Below, piece after piece: positions 49,495 to 58,488 of a DNA stretch of 64,000 nucleotides (position 1 is its first letter; every line of letters starts with the position of its first letter). The position numbers were made by a program, and so were the translations under genes. A model generated the notes under the pieces. That model was not told where the DNA came from. It searched no databases and saw only the letters and a program-made list of their open reading frames with translations. The stretch is from Frankiales bacterium. GTDB lineage: Bacteria; Actinomycetota; Actinomycetes; JAFAQI01. The stretch spans positions 1 to 64,000 of the forward strand of contig JAICXQ010000004.1 of NCBI GenBank assembly GCA_025980325.1, read 5' to 3'.

Positions 49495-49752
49495 TTGAGG
49501 GAGCTGCGCAAGGCACGCGGGATGTCGCTTCGCGAGGCCGCACGCGTCGCCGGGATTGGACGGACCCTGCTGAGTGAGATCGAGCGGCAGGACCGGCCCG
49601 ACCCGCAGCTTTCGGTACTCCTGAAGCTGCAGTACGCCTACGGCCTGCGGAGCATCGAGGAACTGCTCGGGGAGCCTCCCGGCCAGCCCAGCCGCGTGCT
49701 CGCGGCGACGTACGTGACTGCGGCGACAACGGACAGCGGCGACACCGAATGA
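49495..49752 (+). CDS. small XRE-type HTH protein
   Basis: MRELRKARGMSLREAARVAGIGRTLLSEIERQDRPDPQLSVLLKLQYAYGL; TTG start. Confidence 0.65.
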   Translation: MRELRKARGMSLREAARVAGIGRTLLSEIERQDRPDPQLSVLLKLQYAYGLRSIEELLGEPPGQPSRVLAATYVTAATTDSGDTE

Positions 49753-49859: not shown

Positions 49860-49882
49860 GTGGGCGAGGGGGGAGTTGAACC
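49860..49882. repeat. distal att copy (direct repeat of tRNA-Leu 3' end)
   Basis: GTGGGCGAGGGGGGAGTTGAACC, identical to 58405-58427. Confidence 0.85.
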
Positions 49883-50135: not shown

Positions 50136-50681
50136 CTACTGCGACCGAAGGACGTCCTCGACGACGGCGAGGACCTGAGCACGCTGTCGTGGGTTCAGCT
50201 GCTTTACCAGACGAAGCAGCCGTTTGAAGGTCTGGTCCGAGTAGGCGTCGACAGCGCCGGCGACCCCGGCGCCGCCGACATTCGGAGTCAACCCCGCCCA
50301 TTCAGCAAGAGAGTCGAAGTCAAGCCGGTAGAGGTCCGCCAACTCAAGGAGAACGAGGGGGTCCGGCTTCTTGATCAGTCCTCGCTCGACTTGCGACAAG
50401 TAAGCATTGGACCGTCCGGTTATCCGCTCGACCTCACGCAACGACAACCCGCGGTGCTGACGTGCGTGGCGCAGAACACGTCCGACGGCCGGCGTGTCCT
50501 GTCCGACCCGATCGACAGCCATGGGAATGCGCTCCCGAGGAACCTTGCGATCACCACTCCTCCCAGTTTTCGTCGGCGCTAGCTGCGAGGGTTCACGCGG
50601 GCCCGCCATCGGCTCACCGTAGAGCGACTCGACCGAGACTGGAATGCGAATGGAGGAAGACGCTTGCACAGAACACTGCAT
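50136..50681 (-). CDS. XRE family transcriptional regulator, divergent from the CBASS operon
   Basis: VGRVLRHARQHRGLSLREVERITGRSNAYLSQVERGLIKKPDPLVLLELADLY; start may be 50681 or internal ATG 50522. Confidence 0.8.
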   Translation of the reverse strand: MQCSVQASSSIRIPVSVESLYGEPMAGPREPSQLAPTKTGRSGDRKVPRERIPMAVDRVGQDTPAVGRVLRHARQHRGLSLREVERITGRSNAYLSQVERGLIKKPDPLVLLELADLYRLDFDSLAEWAGLTPNVGGAGVAGAVDAYSDQTFKRLLRLVKQLNPRQRAQVLAVVEDVLRSQ

Positions 50682-50722: not shown

Positions 50723-51628
50723 GTGGACGTAGCCGAGACGATCACCCAGTGCCGCGTCATGCCCGATGCAGCGTACGAACCCTTGTGGGACTCCATCGTG
50801 GTGCCGCCGACCGTCAAGGACAGATTGCTCCGGTCTGCGCTCCTCGCGCTCTCGTTGCGACCGAATCTGCCCTTCGAGGTTACGGCCTTGCACGGGCTCG
50901 CCGTGCTGTTCGGACCTCCGGGTACGGGCAAGACAACCCTCGCGCGTGGCCTCGCCGCGCAGTTGGCGCCCCTTACCTCCGCGAAGAAGACCCGTTTCAT
51001 CGAAGTCAACCCACATGGGCTGATGAGCGCTGAGCACGGTCAAAGCCAGCGCAAGGTCGCCGAATTGCTCGGTGAGCACATCCCGCGCCTCGCCGACGAC
51101 GGCATTCCAACCGTCGTTCTGCTCGATGAAGTCGAGTCAATGGCCGTCGCGCGCAGCGAAGCGTCACTGGCCGCCAACCCCGCCGACGTTCACCGCGCGA
51201 CTGATGCGGTGCTTACCGCCTTGGACGCCAACGCGGTCCGCACGCCTCAACTATTCATCGTCGCAACGAGTAACTTCACCCGCGCACTCGATGCGGCATT
51301 CCTCTCTCGGGCCGACGTCGCCATCGAGGTTCCTGCACCCGATAAAGACGGCGCTCTGGCAATCCTGCAGAGGACGCTGACGGGAATGGGCCAGGCTTAC
51401 CCACCCTTGGCGGACCTCGCATACGACGCCGGCCTCAAACGCGTGGCGACGAAGCTCGCAGGCATCGACGGCCGACGCATTCGCAAGGCCGTGACGGAAG
51501 CGATGCTCAGTCGAATCGAGACGGTGCTGGACCCCGGGACCTTGACCGTGAAGGACCTCTTAGCAGGAGCCACGACGGCAACCGAGAGCTCGGACTTCAA
51601 GGAAGGAGACGGCCATGCTGCGGCATAG
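50723..51628 (+). CDS. cap6: CBASS TRIP13/Pch2-like AAA+ ATPase (Cap6)
   Basis: GTG start with AAGGAG RBS; GPPGTGKTTLARGLA, VVLLDEVESM, ATSNF, FLSRADV; downstream HORMA and CD-NTase genes. Confidence 0.88.
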   Translation: MDVAETITQCRVMPDAAYEPLWDSIVVPPTVKDRLLRSALLALSLRPNLPFEVTALHGLAVLFGPPGTGKTTLARGLAAQLAPLTSAKKTRFIEVNPHGLMSAEHGQSQRKVAELLGEHIPRLADDGIPTVVLLDEVESMAVARSEASLAANPADVHRATDAVLTALDANAVRTPQLFIVATSNFTRALDAAFLSRADVAIEVPAPDKDGALAILQRTLTGMGQAYPPLADLAYDAGLKRVATKLAGIDGRRIRKAVTEAMLSRIETVLDPGTLTVKDLLAGATTATESSDFKEGDGHAAA

Positions 51629-52100
51629 ATCGATTGCGGCCGCGCCGGTTCGCGGCGCATCGGAGGCATGGCAGGTGGTCGTACAACTTCTTGCCGACAC
51701 GCTCGAGAGAAGCCCGTCCATCCAAGACGGCAGCGTTCGCGCGGAACTTGCCCCTCTGGCTGGTCTGGGCACCGCCCTCGTAGCCGGAGGTCACCTCGAG
51801 AAGACGCCGCTGATGCTTTCCGACGAAGCCCTAGAGGTGGAGATCCGCGTCGTTACCTCGGATGCGGCGCTGACGATCGAGGAAAACCTCAATCCGGTGC
51901 CGGGTGGGGGCTCTGCGACAACCGACTGGAGCCTCTATCTCCCGGCCCCGGCGCCTTTGGCTGACGCGGCGCGGACAGCCGTCGAGGATTGTGCGCACGT
52001 CACGACCGAAGCGCCAGCGGTACGTAAAGCGAGCGCGGAGGGCAAGGCGGGGAACCTCGTCGACCACTCAGCGGTCGGTCGCTTGGGGAGCGATCAGTGA
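51615..52100 (+). CDS. uncharacterised 161-aa protein embedded in the CBASS operon
   Basis: Overlaps the ATPase stop (14 bp) and the HORMA start (ATGA-like); RHRSIAAAPVRGASEAWQVVVQLLADTLERSPSI...TIEENLNPVPGGGSATTDWSLYLP. Confidence 0.75.
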   Translation: MLRHRSIAAAPVRGASEAWQVVVQLLADTLERSPSIQDGSVRAELAPLAGLGTALVAGGHLEKTPLMLSDEALEVEIRVVTSDAALTIEENLNPVPGGGSATTDWSLYLPAPAPLADAARTAVEDCAHVTTEAPAVRKASAEGKAGNLVDHSAVGRLGSDQ

Positions 52101-52606
52101 CTTACACGTCGACGTCCACCTCGACATTCACTCGCACGCATACCGCGACGTACTTGGCCGACGTCATCCTCGGCTCGATCGCAGACATTCTCGGCAGCGT
52201 CGGTATCGACACCACACGGCTCTTCGCCGACTGGGACACCGACCAGCACGCGATCGGCGAATGGATCAAGGAGGGGTCACTCAGCTGTGTTGCGCTTGAG
52301 TGTCATCAGCCCTCGGGACGGGTCGACCCGATCGTTGAATTCCCAGTGAGCTACTCGGGCACCGGCGAGGGCGACCGGAAGTTCACTGCGGACAGGGCCG
52401 CGTTGGCCGTCTACATGACCAAGATGAAACGGGTCCCAGCAGGCACTACCTACCGGCTCTTCTGCACCTACAACGGCGCCCACAGCGACCAACCTGGCTG
52501 GGGACCGGCCACGCGCGCGGCGACCTCGGGCATGCGTTCGTTTAGTTTCGGCACGCTCGCCGCAGCGCCGCACGCCTCAGCACACCTTCGCTACTACACG
52601 AACTAA
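52097..52606 (+). CDS. cap7: bacterial HORMA domain protein (CBASS Cap7-like)
   Basis: STSTFTRTHTATYLADVILGSIADILGSVGIDTTRLFADWDTDQHAIGEWIKEGSL, typical N-terminus of bacterial HORMA-1 proteins; operon context. Confidence 0.8.
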   Translation: MTYTSTSTSTFTRTHTATYLADVILGSIADILGSVGIDTTRLFADWDTDQHAIGEWIKEGSLSCVALECHQPSGRVDPIVEFPVSYSGTGEGDRKFTADRAALAVYMTKMKRVPAGTTYRLFCTYNGAHSDQPGWGPATRAATSGMRSFSFGTLAAAPHASAHLRYYTN

Positions 52607-52616
52607 CGAGGTCGCC

Positions 52617-53474
52617 ATGGGATACGTCGACGAGGCCTTCGACAACCTCAAGCAAACGCTTGAGATCACTGAGACCGAGCAAGCACTCGCCAAGTCTCGG
52701 CACGAGCTAGTCCGAGAGCACGTGGAAGCGGCGTGGAAGCTCAAGGACCACTTTCTTACTGGTAGTTACTCGCGGCACACCAAGACAAAAAAGTTGAAGG
52801 ACGTCGATATCTTCGTCGTCATCGACCCCGCCGGACCGCAGGGTTACCTCGCCGACAGCTCGCCCACGGATGCTCTCAAGGCGCTCTACGAGGTACTCGC
52901 GACGCGATGGAGTGACCTAACGCTCGACGACAACGTCGTCACCGTCAACTACACCGGTGAGGACGTCGCGTCCTACGAGATTGCACCTGTCTTCCCCCGC
53001 GACGGCGGTGGTTACGTCATGCCGAACGGCCGCAGCTGGATGGCAACTGATCCAACGGTGCATAAGACGATGGTCACGGCGATGAACAAGGAGTGCGACG
53101 GCAAGTTCGTTCCCCTAGTCAAAATGATCAAGGGCATCAACCGCCACTTCGACGAACCGATCTGCCCCTCGTTCTTGCTTGAAGTCATGGTGCTCCGGCT
53201 AGTGCTGCCGCCCTGTGCGCGCTATCGAGACGAAATTCGCTTCTTTCTCGCATCGGCCGCGGATCAACTTACGGTTGACTGGCCGGATCCAGCGGGACTG
53301 GGCGAGGACGTAAATGCGGAGGTCAGTGAAACGCAGCGTCGAACGCTCGCCGATGTTGTTCGAGGATGGCTAACAACCGCCGAAGAAGCACTGTTGCTGG
53401 AGCAGGAGGGTAAGGAACGCGCAGCTGTTGAGAAGTGGCGCGAACTCTTCGGATGGCGAATGCCACGCCCATGA
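52617..53474 (+). CDS. CBASS oligonucleotide cyclase (CD-NTase)
   Basis: Nucleotidyltransferase motif GSYSRHTKTKKLKDVDIFVVI; ASYEIAPVFP third-acid region; VKMIKGINRHF. Confidence 0.9.
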   Translation: MGYVDEAFDNLKQTLEITETEQALAKSRHELVREHVEAAWKLKDHFLTGSYSRHTKTKKLKDVDIFVVIDPAGPQGYLADSSPTDALKALYEVLATRWSDLTLDDNVVTVNYTGEDVASYEIAPVFPRDGGGYVMPNGRSWMATDPTVHKTMVTAMNKECDGKFVPLVKMIKGINRHFDEPICPSFLLEVMVLRLVLPPCARYRDEIRFFLASAADQLTVDWPDPAGLGEDVNAEVSETQRRTLADVVRGWLTTAEEALLLEQEGKERAAVEKWRELFGWRMPRP

Positions 53475-54433
53475 TCGAGGCCGCCGACGGGCATGAGCCG
53501 GCACGACAGGGGTTTCAGATAGTGCAACGACGCACTGAACCACCTATTACCGAGCAACAGAACTCGGATGCCTGCCTTCGGCTGCTGGCAGCCCAACGTC
53601 AGCTGTACGCAGAAGTCAAGCGAAGCAGCGACCGACGGCTCGCCACCCTGTTCCTGGTGACGATCGCTACGATTCTCGTAGGTGCAATCGTTCCTGATTC
53701 TCGCAACTACATCGGCGGCGTCGCGGCGTTGGCGATGGGCACGTGGGTCAGTGTCGCGGAGTTGCGCGAGCGAACGAGCATCGGCCAAGCCGCCAGCATC
53801 CAAGAACACTTCGATACGGGTCTGTTTCAGCTGCGGTGGCACGACTTCCTGGCGGATCGCCCTTCCGAATGGGCGATCACCGAGGCGGCCGGACGCGGCT
53901 CGCTAGATGGTCTCGCTGATTGGTACCGACCCAAGACGATCAGCAGCATCGTTCGGCCCCTCGACGTGCTCATCTGTCAGCGAGCCAACCTCGACTACGG
54001 CGTCAGCCTGCATACGTCCTATGCGCGAAGCCTGGCCTGGATGCTGGGCGCCGGGATCGTCGGTGCATTCGCTGCCGGCGGCGTGCTCGGGTACTCCGTA
54101 TGGAACTTCGTCTTTGCCATCGCAGCACCTCTCGCGCCCATCGTAGTCACCGCCGTTAACGAAATCCAGGCGCACCTGACGAGCGCTTCGAACAAGGAGT
54201 CCGCCGAGGCGAAGGTAGCCGATCTTTGGCGGCGCGGACTCGCAGAGCCGAATGAGATCACCGACGACGAGTGCCGCGCTGCGCAGGATTGCATCCTCGG
54301 CTTCCGCAAGACCAATGCCCAGGTGCCCGAGTGGTTGTACAACCGCTCGCGTGAACGGAACGAGGCAGTCATGTTGGCGACTTGCTCGGCGCTGGTCGAA
54401 GAGGCGATCCGCCACGGCCACGCCCTCCGATGA
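53471..54433 (+). CDS. S-4TM family putative pore-forming CBASS effector
   Basis: ATGA overlap with CD-NTase; ITEQQNSDACLRLLAAQRQLYAEVKRSSDRRLATLFL and four predicted TM helices. Confidence 0.85.
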   Translation: MIEAADGHEPARQGFQIVQRRTEPPITEQQNSDACLRLLAAQRQLYAEVKRSSDRRLATLFLVTIATILVGAIVPDSRNYIGGVAALAMGTWVSVAELRERTSIGQAASIQEHFDTGLFQLRWHDFLADRPSEWAITEAAGRGSLDGLADWYRPKTISSIVRPLDVLICQRANLDYGVSLHTSYARSLAWMLGAGIVGAFAAGGVLGYSVWNFVFAIAAPLAPIVVTAVNEIQAHLTSASNKESAEAKVADLWRRGLAEPNEITDDECRAAQDCILGFRKTNAQVPEWLYNRSRERNEAVMLATCSALVEEAIRHGHALR

Positions 54434-54703: not shown

Positions 54704-56803
54704 ATGAAAGCTGTCGACTCACATCTGCTGACGTTGCTCAAGGCGAGTAGTCAGTTCATTGTGCCGATCTACCAACGGGTCTACTCCTGGCAAGACTCGG
54801 AGTGCGCTCAGTTGTGGGCAGACATTCTGCGGGCCGGGGCCAACCTGAGACTTGGAGCGCACTTCACCGGCTCGATCGTGTACGTAGCCAAAGACCAGTC
54901 GACCAACACCTCCGCAGAGCCCGATCTCATCATCGACGGCCAGCAACGGATAACAACGGTGACCCTCATCCTGACGGCTTTGGCGGCGCAGCTTGAGGCC
55001 CTTCCCGAAGATGCGCGTGAGCCTTGGGATGGGTTTTCCCCCAAGAAGATCCGCAACCGCTACCTGCTCAATGACGACGAAGAGGGTGAACGTCAGTTCA
55101 AGCTGATCCTGTCGCAGAACGACAAAGATGCCTTGATCTCACTCCTTCAAGGGGTCGAGCCAACCGATGGCCTTGTGACTCGCGTGGCCGACAACTACGC
55201 GTATTTTCAGCAGCGGCTCGCGGATCCGAAACTCGACCTCGCCGTTGTGTGTCGCGGTCTCGACAAGCTAGTCGTGGTTGATGTCAAGCTTGAGCGCGGT
55301 GTCGACAATCCGCAGCTCGTCTTTGAGGCGATGAACTCGACGGGTAAGAAGCTGTCGCAGGCGGATCTGATCCGGAACTACGTCCTTATGGATCTGCCAA
55401 CCAAGGAGCAAGAGAAGGTCTACACCGCTTATTGGCGACCGATGGAACTCGAGTTCTCCGGTGCCGACGAGAGCCAATTTGACGAGTTCGTCCGCCACTA
55501 CCTGACGATCAACACCGGCGACATCCCTCGACTCGACGACATCTACGAGGCGTTCAAGGACCACGCAGTCGTCAACACGAACGCCGACGAGACGATCCAA
55601 TCGCTCGTCGTCGAGTTGCGGCAATATGCGCGACGGTACTGCGCGATGGCCCTCGGCAAGGAGCCCGATCCGAAGTTGCGCCGTGCGTTCAAGGACCTGG
55701 ATCAGATCAAGGCCGACGTGGTCTATCCGTTCCTCCTGGAGGCCTATACGGACTATGAGCTTGGCGTCCTCGACCGCGACGAGCTGCACGAAATCGTTCA
55801 GATGGTGACGGCGTACATCTTCCGGCGCGCGGTTTGCCGCATTCCGACCAACTCACTGAACAAGACGTTCGCCAGTTTCAGCGCCGCCATCCGGAAGGAC
55901 CGCTACGTCGACAGCGTCAAGGCGCACTTCCTCAGCCTGAAGAGCTACCGATCGTTCCCGACCGACATCGAGTTTCGGGCGTCGCTCAAGACCACAGACC
56001 TCTACAACTTCCGGCGCCGGTCCTACTTCCTGCGACTGCTGGAGAACCACGGCCGCAAGGAGCACGTGACCATCGAGGATTACACCATCGAACACATCCT
56101 TCCCCAGAACGAGAACCTCTCGGAGGAGTGGCGTGAAGCCTTGGGGCCCGACTGGGCCGATCTCCAGCAGAAACATCTGCACACGCTCGGCAACCTGACG
56201 CTTACGGGCTACAACTCGGAATACTCCGACCACTCATTCGAGACCAAGCGCGACATGGAGGGCGGTTTCAGAGACAGCCCGCTTCGACTCAACAAAGGGC
56301 TCGGGCACTTGGCGACCTGGAACGTGTCGGAGATAGAGAAGCGCGCAGAGCGCCTCGCCGAGGACGCGATCGCGGTCTGGCCCCGGCCTGAACTTCCGGA
56401 CAACGTCATTGCCGAATTCCAGCAGCAGCGAGCCGCGTCTGACTTTTCCATCGAGGACCACCCGCACCTACTGCCACCGAAGCGCCGGCAACTGTTTGAG
56501 CAATTCAGCAACGAGGCGCTCGCGCTGGACCCGGGTATTACGCGTCACTTCCTCAAGCACTACGTGGCGTTCAAGGCAGAGACGAACTTCGTAGACGTGG
56601 TTCCGCAAAAGGGGCGGCTGCGACTGAGCCTGAATATTCCGCTGGAGGCACTTCATGACGAACGAGGCCTCGCTTGGGACGTCAGCAGGAAGGGCCATTG
56701 GGGCAACGGGGTGACCGAGGTCGGACTCAACGAAGAATCGGACTTCAACTACGTGATAGGGCTTGTTCGTCAAGCGTTCGAGTATCAGATGGGCGGCGAC
56801 TGA
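54704..56803 (+). CDS. DUF262/DUF1524 GmrSD-like protein with C-terminal DUF5655-like region (putative type IV restriction)
   Basis: FIVPIYQRVYSW, DGQQRITTVTLIL, TIEHILPQNENL, LGNLTLTGYNSEYSDHSFETKRD. Confidence 0.88.
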   Translation: MKAVDSHLLTLLKASSQFIVPIYQRVYSWQDSECAQLWADILRAGANLRLGAHFTGSIVYVAKDQSTNTSAEPDLIIDGQQRITTVTLILTALAAQLEALPEDAREPWDGFSPKKIRNRYLLNDDEEGERQFKLILSQNDKDALISLLQGVEPTDGLVTRVADNYAYFQQRLADPKLDLAVVCRGLDKLVVVDVKLERGVDNPQLVFEAMNSTGKKLSQADLIRNYVLMDLPTKEQEKVYTAYWRPMELEFSGADESQFDEFVRHYLTINTGDIPRLDDIYEAFKDHAVVNTNADETIQSLVVELRQYARRYCAMALGKEPDPKLRRAFKDLDQIKADVVYPFLLEAYTDYELGVLDRDELHEIVQMVTAYIFRRAVCRIPTNSLNKTFASFSAAIRKDRYVDSVKAHFLSLKSYRSFPTDIEFRASLKTTDLYNFRRRSYFLRLLENHGRKEHVTIEDYTIEHILPQNENLSEEWREALGPDWADLQQKHLHTLGNLTLTGYNSEYSDHSFETKRDMEGGFRDSPLRLNKGLGHLATWNVSEIEKRAERLAEDAIAVWPRPELPDNVIAEFQQQRAASDFSIEDHPHLLPPKRRQLFEQFSNEALALDPGITRHFLKHYVAFKAETNFVDVVPQKGRLRLSLNIPLEALHDERGLAWDVSRKGHWGNGVTEVGLNEESDFNYVIGLVRQAFEYQMGGD

Positions 56804-57702: not shown

Positions 57703-57942
57703 TCAGGCAACATCGCCCGCCGGGAACAACTGCCACCCAAGTTCCGGAGCCCAACGAATCCCGTACGGCACCGACCATGCACTCGCAAGCCACAGATGAG
57801 TAAGAGGCTCAGGCAACTGCGGTGGCCGGTCGGGTAGCGGCGGTGTATCGCTTCCTAGCAAAGCCATGACCGCCTCGTCTGGCGCGATTGTCAGCGGCGG
57901 CAAGATAAGGAACAGGTGCCGCTGCGGAAGTTGTGCCGCAGT
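57703..57942 (-). pseudogene. C-terminal remnant of an unidentified protein
   Basis: ORF tail LPQRHLFLILPPLTIAPDEAVMALLGSDTPPLPDRPPQLPEPLTHLWLASAWSVPYGIRWAPELGWQLFPAG reads as real protein, without a plausible own start. Confidence 0.35.
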
Positions 57943-58304
57943 TAGCTGTCCTGACCAAGGACGTTGCTGGCCGTGGTCATGCGGCGAGCCGGGTGATCGG
58001 GGGGTGACCGCCGGCGGCTTTGCGTGTCCGGCCCGACACTCGTCAGCCGCCGTACGTACGCCTTGCCGAAGTCGAGCAGCGGCGTTTCTTCGAGCACGTC
58101 GTGCACCGTGGCGAATCCGACGCCCTTCACCCAGCCCGGCGGCCACCGGTTGCCGTGAGCTTCGACCTGTGCTTGGAACTTGGTCGCCGCGAGCTTGACG
58201 TCGAAGGTCTCGGACTGCCATCCGCTGCCTCGGCCGCCGGTGCGCCACTGCACCTTGTATGCCGTCGTGCCGTCGCTGCGTTTGCGGGTCACTAATCCGG
58301 CCAT
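57942..58304 (-). pseudogene. truncated tyrosine recombinase/integrase (N-terminal part only)
   Basis: MAGLVTRKRSDGTTAYKVQWRTGGRGSGWQSETFDVKLAATKFQAQVEAHGNRWPPGWVKG integrase N-terminal pattern; catalytic domain absent. Confidence 0.75.
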
Positions 58305-58402: not shown

Positions 58403-58488
58403 TGGTGGGCGAGGGGGGAGTTGAACCCCCACGTCCTTACGGACACACGGACCTGAACCGTGCGCGTCTGCCATTCCGCCACTCGCCC
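58403..58488 (-). tRNA. tRNA-Leu (anticodon CAG), CCA encoded
   Basis: GGGCGAGTGGCGGAATGGCAGACGCGCACGGTTCAGGTCCGTGTGTCCGTAAGGACGTGGGGGTTCAACTCCCCCCTCGCCCACCA; class II with long variable arm; anticodon loop TTCAGGT. Confidence 0.95.

What the first reader, a model, noticed from the sequence alone, without database searches (positions are those of the whole stretch)
51615..52100. Uncharacterised 161-aa component inside the CBASS operon
Seen: this ORF starts 14 bp before the ATPase stop and overlaps the HORMA start by 4 bp, so it is coupled on both sides. It has an ordered N-terminal region with a striking TIEENLNPVPGGGSATTDWSLYLP motif and a polar, probably disordered C-terminal tail (TTEAPAVRKASAEGKAGNLVDHSAVGRLGSDQ). 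I cannot match it to any named Cap protein. Inference: a possible accessory factor, for example a second divergent HORMA-like or closure-motif donor, a sensor, or an inhibitor.
Basis: partly seen in the sequence, partly recalled or inferred. Interest (0 to 1): 0.8.

Follow-up and report, generated by a model that had tools for sequence, protein, structure and literature searches.

The report
Second HORMA protein of a CBASS operon
The supposedly unknown gene in this bacterial antiviral operon is the second, very divergent HORMA-type regulator already known from two-HORMA (type III) CBASS systems, and it carries a conserved short C-terminal tail that may act as a built-in binding peptide for its partner HORMA protein.

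Summary
The ORF is real, at the stated coordinates, with the stated overlaps. It is not an unnamed component. It matches PADLOC's HORMA model PDLC00885 (E=8.7e-35). Its profile and its predicted fold both single out one solved protein, P. aeruginosa ATCC27853 'HORMA1' (6P8P), whose core is also solved bound to HORMA2 and a peptide (6P8S). All 15 homologous loci found across sequenced genomes keep the order TRIP13 – this gene – HORMA2 – CD-NTase (then the 4TM effector wherever the contig is long enough). Nine proteobacterial plasmids have a homologue in the same slot before other effectors. The window is therefore an actinobacterial two-HORMA type III CBASS. New detail: after an ordered core without a recognisable safety belt, the protein ends in a predicted-disordered tail. 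The tail's last residues carry a motif, hydrophobic-D/N-x-x-small-hydrophobic, conserved between Actinobacteria and Proteobacteria and under core-like purifying selection (dN/dS 0.15; linker 0.41). My best mechanism is a regulatory partner that docks on HORMA2 with its core and offers the tail as a closure motif. Binding was not tested. New member of a known kind; modest interest.

The parts
51615..52100 (+). Second HORMA protein (P. aeruginosa HORMA1-type; the HORMA3/Cap8 slot of two-HORMA type III CBASS), 161 aa
   Evidence: PADLOC PDLC00885 E=8.7e-35; PDB 6p8p phmmer 2.2e-4, profile 3.3e-8; Foldseek top 4 hits 6p8p/6p8s_C, prob 1.00; conserved gene slot
52053..52079 (+). Candidate closure motif in the disordered tail, residues 147-155 NLVDHSAVG
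   Evidence: D150 invariant in the actinobacterial set; D/N position kept in proteobacterial tails; pattern in 11 of 13 divergent tails against 0.13 expected; dN/dS 0.15 against 0.41 for the linker
50723..51628 (+). TRIP13/Pch2-like AAA+ ATPase (Cap6)
   Evidence: PADLOC TRIP13 PDLC00915 E=7.8e-118
52097..52606 (+). HORMA2, the canonical HORMA partner
   Evidence: Pfam bacHORMA_2 1.4e-22; PADLOC PDLC00883 4e-78; predicted fold matches P. aeruginosa HORMA2 (6p8r), then Mad2, HTP-2 and REV7
52617..53474 (+). CD-NTase (CBASS oligonucleotide cyclase)
   Evidence: NCBIfam NF041117 242 bits, above its cut-off of 200; nearest solved chain 6p8u_A, the CD-NTase of the CdnD:HORMA2:Peptide 1 complex
53435..54433 (+). 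S-4TM putative pore-forming effector (GTG start uncertain; domain begins at residue 37)
   Evidence: Pfam S_4TM 2.9e-58
50136..50681 (-). Divergent XRE-type HTH protein, possible operon regulator
   Evidence: Pfam HTH_31 6e-12; weak PADLOC capH match 6.7e-5; role inferred from position

Best explanation
The 161-aa protein is the second, divergent HORMA subunit of a two-HORMA type III CBASS. Shown: its family, its fold match, its conserved gene slot and its conserved tail motif. Inferred: its core (about residues 5-130) docks on HORMA2, as the P. aeruginosa orthologue does in 6P8S. The flexible tail presents a short motif (here NLVDHSAVG) that can be captured by the safety belt of HORMA2 as a closure motif. 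This would hold HORMA2 in a defined, operon-controlled state, limiting or priming its activation of the CD-NTase until a phage-derived peptide competes for the same groove. TRIP13, translated just before it from an overlapping frame, would reset the complex. The CD-NTase product then opens the 4TM membrane effector. The direction of the effect (inhibitor or primer) is not determined. Confidence in the identity alone (second HORMA of a two-HORMA type III CBASS) is about 0.95; the figure below is for the whole mechanism.
For: Family: PADLOC HORMA PDLC00885 at 8.7e-35; all 15 aligned members, actinobacterial and proteobacterial, match PDLC00881. Structure: only 6p8p/6p8s_C are found by sequence profile (3e-8) and by fold (prob 1.00, TMt 0.64); the PDB titles are 'HORMA1' and 'HORMA1:HORMA2:Peptide 1 complex'. 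Neighbourhood: 15 of 15 genome loci plus a Rhodococcus plasmid, and 9 proteobacterial plasmids, keep TRIP13 - this gene - HORMA2 - CD-NTase. Tail: the motif is shared across two phyla; 11 of 13 divergent tails hold it against 0.13 expected after shuffling; dN/dS is 0.15 in the motif, 0.41 in the linker, 0.19 in the core. The model shows no safety belt after the last core helix, whereas HORMA2 has one. The orthologue in 6P8S is cut at residue 133, and a separate peptide is named in that entry.
Against: No binding was tested or predicted for the pair. 6P8S shows that the core binds HORMA2 without the tail, so the tail need not be the link. 6P8U shows CD-NTase and HORMA2 assembling with a peptide and without this protein. 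The shuffle-test pattern was chosen after seeing the tails. Profile-profile comparison of this protein with HORMA2 finds nothing, so homology to canonical HORMA rests on the P. aeruginosa structures.
Confidence: 0.5

Rival explanations
1. It works like p31comet in eukaryotes: a HORMA-like adaptor that docks on closed, peptide-bound HORMA2 and delivers it to TRIP13 for opening. The tail would be secondary.
For: 6P8S is a complex of the orthologue with HORMA2 and a peptide, the same composition as the Mad2/p31comet/peptide entry 2qyf listed. The gene always follows TRIP13 with a fixed 14-bp overlap in actinobacteria. The model shows no safety belt for its own ligand.
Against: The fold search with the model lists no p31comet chain among its 50 best. 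From memory, one-HORMA systems have TRIP13 acting on HORMA directly, so an adaptor is not strictly needed. A conserved tail motif is not explained.
Confidence: 0.3
2. It is an independent sensor or simple inhibitor: its core covers the CD-NTase-binding face of HORMA2, with no closure-motif role for the tail.
For: 6P8S contains HORMA2 with this protein and 6P8U contains HORMA2 with the CD-NTase; no entry found here holds both.
Against: Does not explain the cross-phylum tail motif under core-like constraint. Interfaces could not be compared here.
Confidence: 0.15
3. It is a component unrelated to HORMA proteins that happens to lie in the operon.
For: No Pfam or NCBIfam match; no profile similarity to HORMA2.
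Against: PADLOC HORMA models, PDB profile match and fold match all point to P. aeruginosa HORMA1; the slot is conserved.
Confidence: 0.03

Closest known systems
P. aeruginosa ATCC27853 HORMA1 (PDB 6P8P; in complex with HORMA2 and Peptide 1 in 6P8S)
   Same: Same operon slot, sequence profile match 3.3e-8, best fold match, similar length (156 against 161 aa), and a C-terminal tail ending in a related motif (AMSLDLGGFLKS)
   Different: About 20% identity; the tail has a different sequence around the shared hydrophobic-D/N core and a few extra residues at the end. Actinobacterial systems found here use a 4TM effector; the proteobacterial plasmid systems mostly have DUF6602, one SAVED
Two-HORMA type III CBASS (cap6 TRIP13, cap7/cap8 HORMA; 'Type III (2-HORMA)' in PMC9122588)
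   Same: TRIP13, two HORMA proteins, CD-NTase and effector in one operon
   Different: Nothing essential; an actinobacterial lineage of it
p31comet (eukaryotic Mad2-binding HORMA-like adaptor of TRIP13)
   Same: A divergent HORMA-like partner seen with a HORMA:peptide complex, working with a TRIP13 ATPase (analogy)
   Different: Not among the 50 best fold matches listed; no sequence link; adaptor function not tested
Meiotic HORMADs with C-terminal closure motifs
   Same: HORMA core followed by a flexible tail ending in a short conserved motif (analogy)
   Different: The core here appears to lack a safety belt of its own; tail binding not tested

Membership tests
Bacterial second HORMA (PADLOC HORMA PDLC00885/PDLC00881; P. 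aeruginosa HORMA1-type) | Significant match to the curated family model over most of its length | tested here: met
   PDLC00885 8.7e-35 over residues 1-155; all 15 aligned members match PDLC00881
Bacterial second HORMA (PADLOC HORMA PDLC00885/PDLC00881; P. aeruginosa HORMA1-type) | Fold of the solved P. aeruginosa HORMA1 | tested here: met
   Model pLDDT 73.7; Foldseek top four hits 6p8p/6p8s_C, prob 1.00, TMq 0.53, TMt 0.64, rmsd 4.4-4.6, so a moderate match
Canonical HORMA domain (Mad2, Hop1, Rev7, bacHORMA_1/2) | Sequence match to a HORMA family of Pfam | tested here: not met
   No Pfam family at E up to 1; none of the seven weak matches of the 15 members is a HORMA family
Canonical HORMA domain (Mad2, Hop1, Rev7, bacHORMA_1/2) | C-terminal safety belt able to wrap a closure motif | tested here: inconclusive
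   No strands after the helix at 116-124 beyond residue 130 in the model, whereas HORMA2 has strands at 147-157 and 160-168; shallow alignments
Two-HORMA type III CBASS | Operon with TRIP13, two HORMA proteins, CD-NTase and effector | tested here: met
   Window genes; same order in 15 genome loci and 10 plasmids; effector not seen where the contig ends
Two-HORMA type III CBASS | Protection from phage through HORMA-activated cyclase | not testable with these tools
   Needs expression and phage assays
Closure-motif donor | Conserved short motif in a flexible tail | tested here: met
Closure-motif donor | Tail bound in the HORMA2 safety belt | not testable with these tools
p31comet-like adaptor | Structural resemblance to p31comet | tested here: inconclusive
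   No p31comet chain among the 50 matches listed, but the only confident matches of any kind are P. aeruginosa HORMA1

The most novel reading that the evidence does not exclude
In two-HORMA CBASS the peptide sensor HORMA2 is kept loaded by the tail of its own operon partner. The conserved tail motif would be an internal closure motif shared by actinobacterial and proteobacterial systems, and phage sensing would be the exchange of this tail for a phage peptide of similar pattern. The motif would then give a handle for finding the unknown phage triggers.
Probability: 0.3. Interest if true: 0.6.

Novelty: new member of a known kind. Interest (0 to 1): 0.3.

Why it matters
It turns an apparently unknown operon gene into a known regulator and shows that Pfam and NCBIfam have no model for this HORMA class, so it is annotated 'hypothetical' in the annotated records seen. 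The conserved tail motif gives a specific, cheap test of how two-HORMA CBASS is kept off and what peptides switch it on, which as far as I know is still open.

Tried and rejected
Pfam and NCBIfam scans of the protein: nothing. tblastn in phage records and scans of viral contigs for this protein: nothing. Fold search in viral models: nothing at E<0.001. Profile-profile comparison with HORMA2: nothing. The two key papers, Ye et al. 2020 and Millman et al. 2020, are not in the library, nor is the earlier survey PMC4678834; what they say about this subunit could not be read, so the tail-as-closure-motif idea may already be published. A recalled sequence of 'Peptide 1' could not be verified and is not used. 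A phage contig carrying a piece of the gene pair is reported below and not used as evidence.

Full report
Observation. The ORF at 51615-52100 is present as described, 161 codons plus stop, overlapping the TRIP13 ORF by 14 bp and the HORMA2 start by 4 bp. In 14 actinobacterial loci the first overlap is always 14 bp, and the second is 4 bp in 11 of them. The first-stage description of the sequence is correct.

What it is. Pfam and NCBIfam give nothing, but PADLOC gives HORMA PDLC00885 at 8.7e-35 and PDLC00881 at 1.2e-9. In the PDB sequences the only convincing matches are 6p8p and 6p8s_C (2e-4 singly, 3e-8 with a 15-sequence profile). An AlphaFold2 model with 14 sequences has an ordered core and a tail (137-161) below pLDDT 50. 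Its four best Foldseek matches, the only ones with high probability, are chains of 'P. aeruginosa ATCC27853 HORMA1' and 'HORMA1:HORMA2:Peptide 1 complex'. The neighbour P0002 is a canonical HORMA: Pfam bacHORMA_2, and its model matches P. aeruginosa HORMA2, then Mad2, HTP-2 and REV7. A review in the library states that operons with the HORMA2 and HORMA3 classes behave differently from those with HORMA1 (PMC10419184), and PMC9122588 counts 'Type III (2-HORMA)' systems. The PDB calls the P. aeruginosa protein HORMA1; the class names differ between sources.

Neighbourhood. One scan of 84,980 species genomes found 15 loci. All have TRIP13, this gene, HORMA2 and CD-NTase in that order; the 4TM gene follows in all but L018, where the contig ends, and the gene itself is split between two frames in L018. 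A Rhodococcus opacus plasmid has the same set, with this gene annotated 'hypothetical protein' from an internal start. Searching with HORMA2 instead found nine proteobacterial plasmids. In the seven annotated ones the ~155-aa gene between the AAA ATPase and HORMA is 'hypothetical', and the two unannotated ones carry it too. Members of both phyla match PDLC00881. No homologue outside CBASS was seen. The family is rare in the sample: 2 of 397 genomes of the phylum, the window's own genome included.

The tail. After a variable linker, the last residues carry a motif: PLIDREAL in most actinobacteria, NLVDHSAV in the window, SLDLGGF, EIDLEGL or VLDPKGF in proteobacteria. The pattern [ILV][DN]xx[AG][ILVF] is in 11 of 13 divergent tails; shuffled tails give 0.13 on average and never more than 3. 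The pattern was chosen after seeing the tails and the sequences are related, so this is descriptive. In eleven closely related genes dN/dS is 0.15 for the motif, 0.41 for the linker and 0.19 for the core. A short conserved motif at the end of a flexible tail next to a peptide-binding HORMA partner is what a closure motif looks like; that step is inference. In 6P8P the construct has 156 residues and 130-132 are modelled, so the tail is probably mostly unseen in the free protein. In 6P8S the chain ends at 133 and a separate peptide is named.

Mechanism. That the orthologue and HORMA2 form a complex is shown by entry 6P8S; CD-NTase with HORMA2 and peptide, without this protein, is shown by entry 6P8U. 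It is therefore more likely a regulator of HORMA2 than the direct cyclase activator. I favour the tail as internal closure motif (0.5) over a p31comet-like TRIP13 adaptor (0.3); the two are compatible. The sign of regulation is open.

Novelty. The protein is a new, actinobacterial member of a known kind. The cross-phylum tail motif was derived here; whether it is already described in Ye et al. 2020 could not be checked because the paper is not in the library.

Noticed in passing
L028:2764-3005 (IMGVR_UViG_3300035557_000003): A viral contig carries 242 bp, 98% identical to the Tistrella pTM3 CBASS, between its portal gene (Phage_portal_3) and Mu-F-like head gene: the end of the second-HORMA gene with its tail motif, in frame with the portal, plus the first ~60 codons of HORMA2. 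A near-identical phage (L039) has a normal junction there. Assembly chimera or real acquisition, perhaps a decoy.
   Followed up: partly
window 49860-49882 and 58405-58427: A perfect 23-bp direct repeat brackets the CBASS and the GmrSD gene; the right copy is the 3' end of a tRNA-Leu(CAG) gene (58403-58488, minus). HORMA2 is absent from the 12 relatives searched and the region left of the tRNA differs in two congeners, so this looks like an integrated defence island.
   Followed up: partly
window 54704-56803: GmrSD-type (DUF262/HNH) protein with a C-terminal DUF5655 domain directly downstream of the CBASS; PADLOC 'Orf5' at 2e-175.
   Followed up: no
window 49495-49752 and 50136-50681: Two HTH_3-type regulators upstream of the operon, on opposite strands; no ImmA/IrrE partner was recognised, unlike several proteobacterial relatives that carry HTH plus ImmA/IrrE genes.
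   Followed up: no
window 57942-58304 (minus): 120-aa ORF beside the tRNA-Leu whose start resembles an integrase N-terminus by eye; no Pfam match, perhaps a remnant.
   Followed up: partly
L003:6001-6483: The Rhodococcus opacus homologue is annotated from an internal start (6181), losing 60 conserved N-terminal residues.
   Followed up: yes
L018:5938-6479: The second-HORMA gene is split between two frames in this metagenome-assembled genome, a frameshift or assembly error.
   Followed up: no
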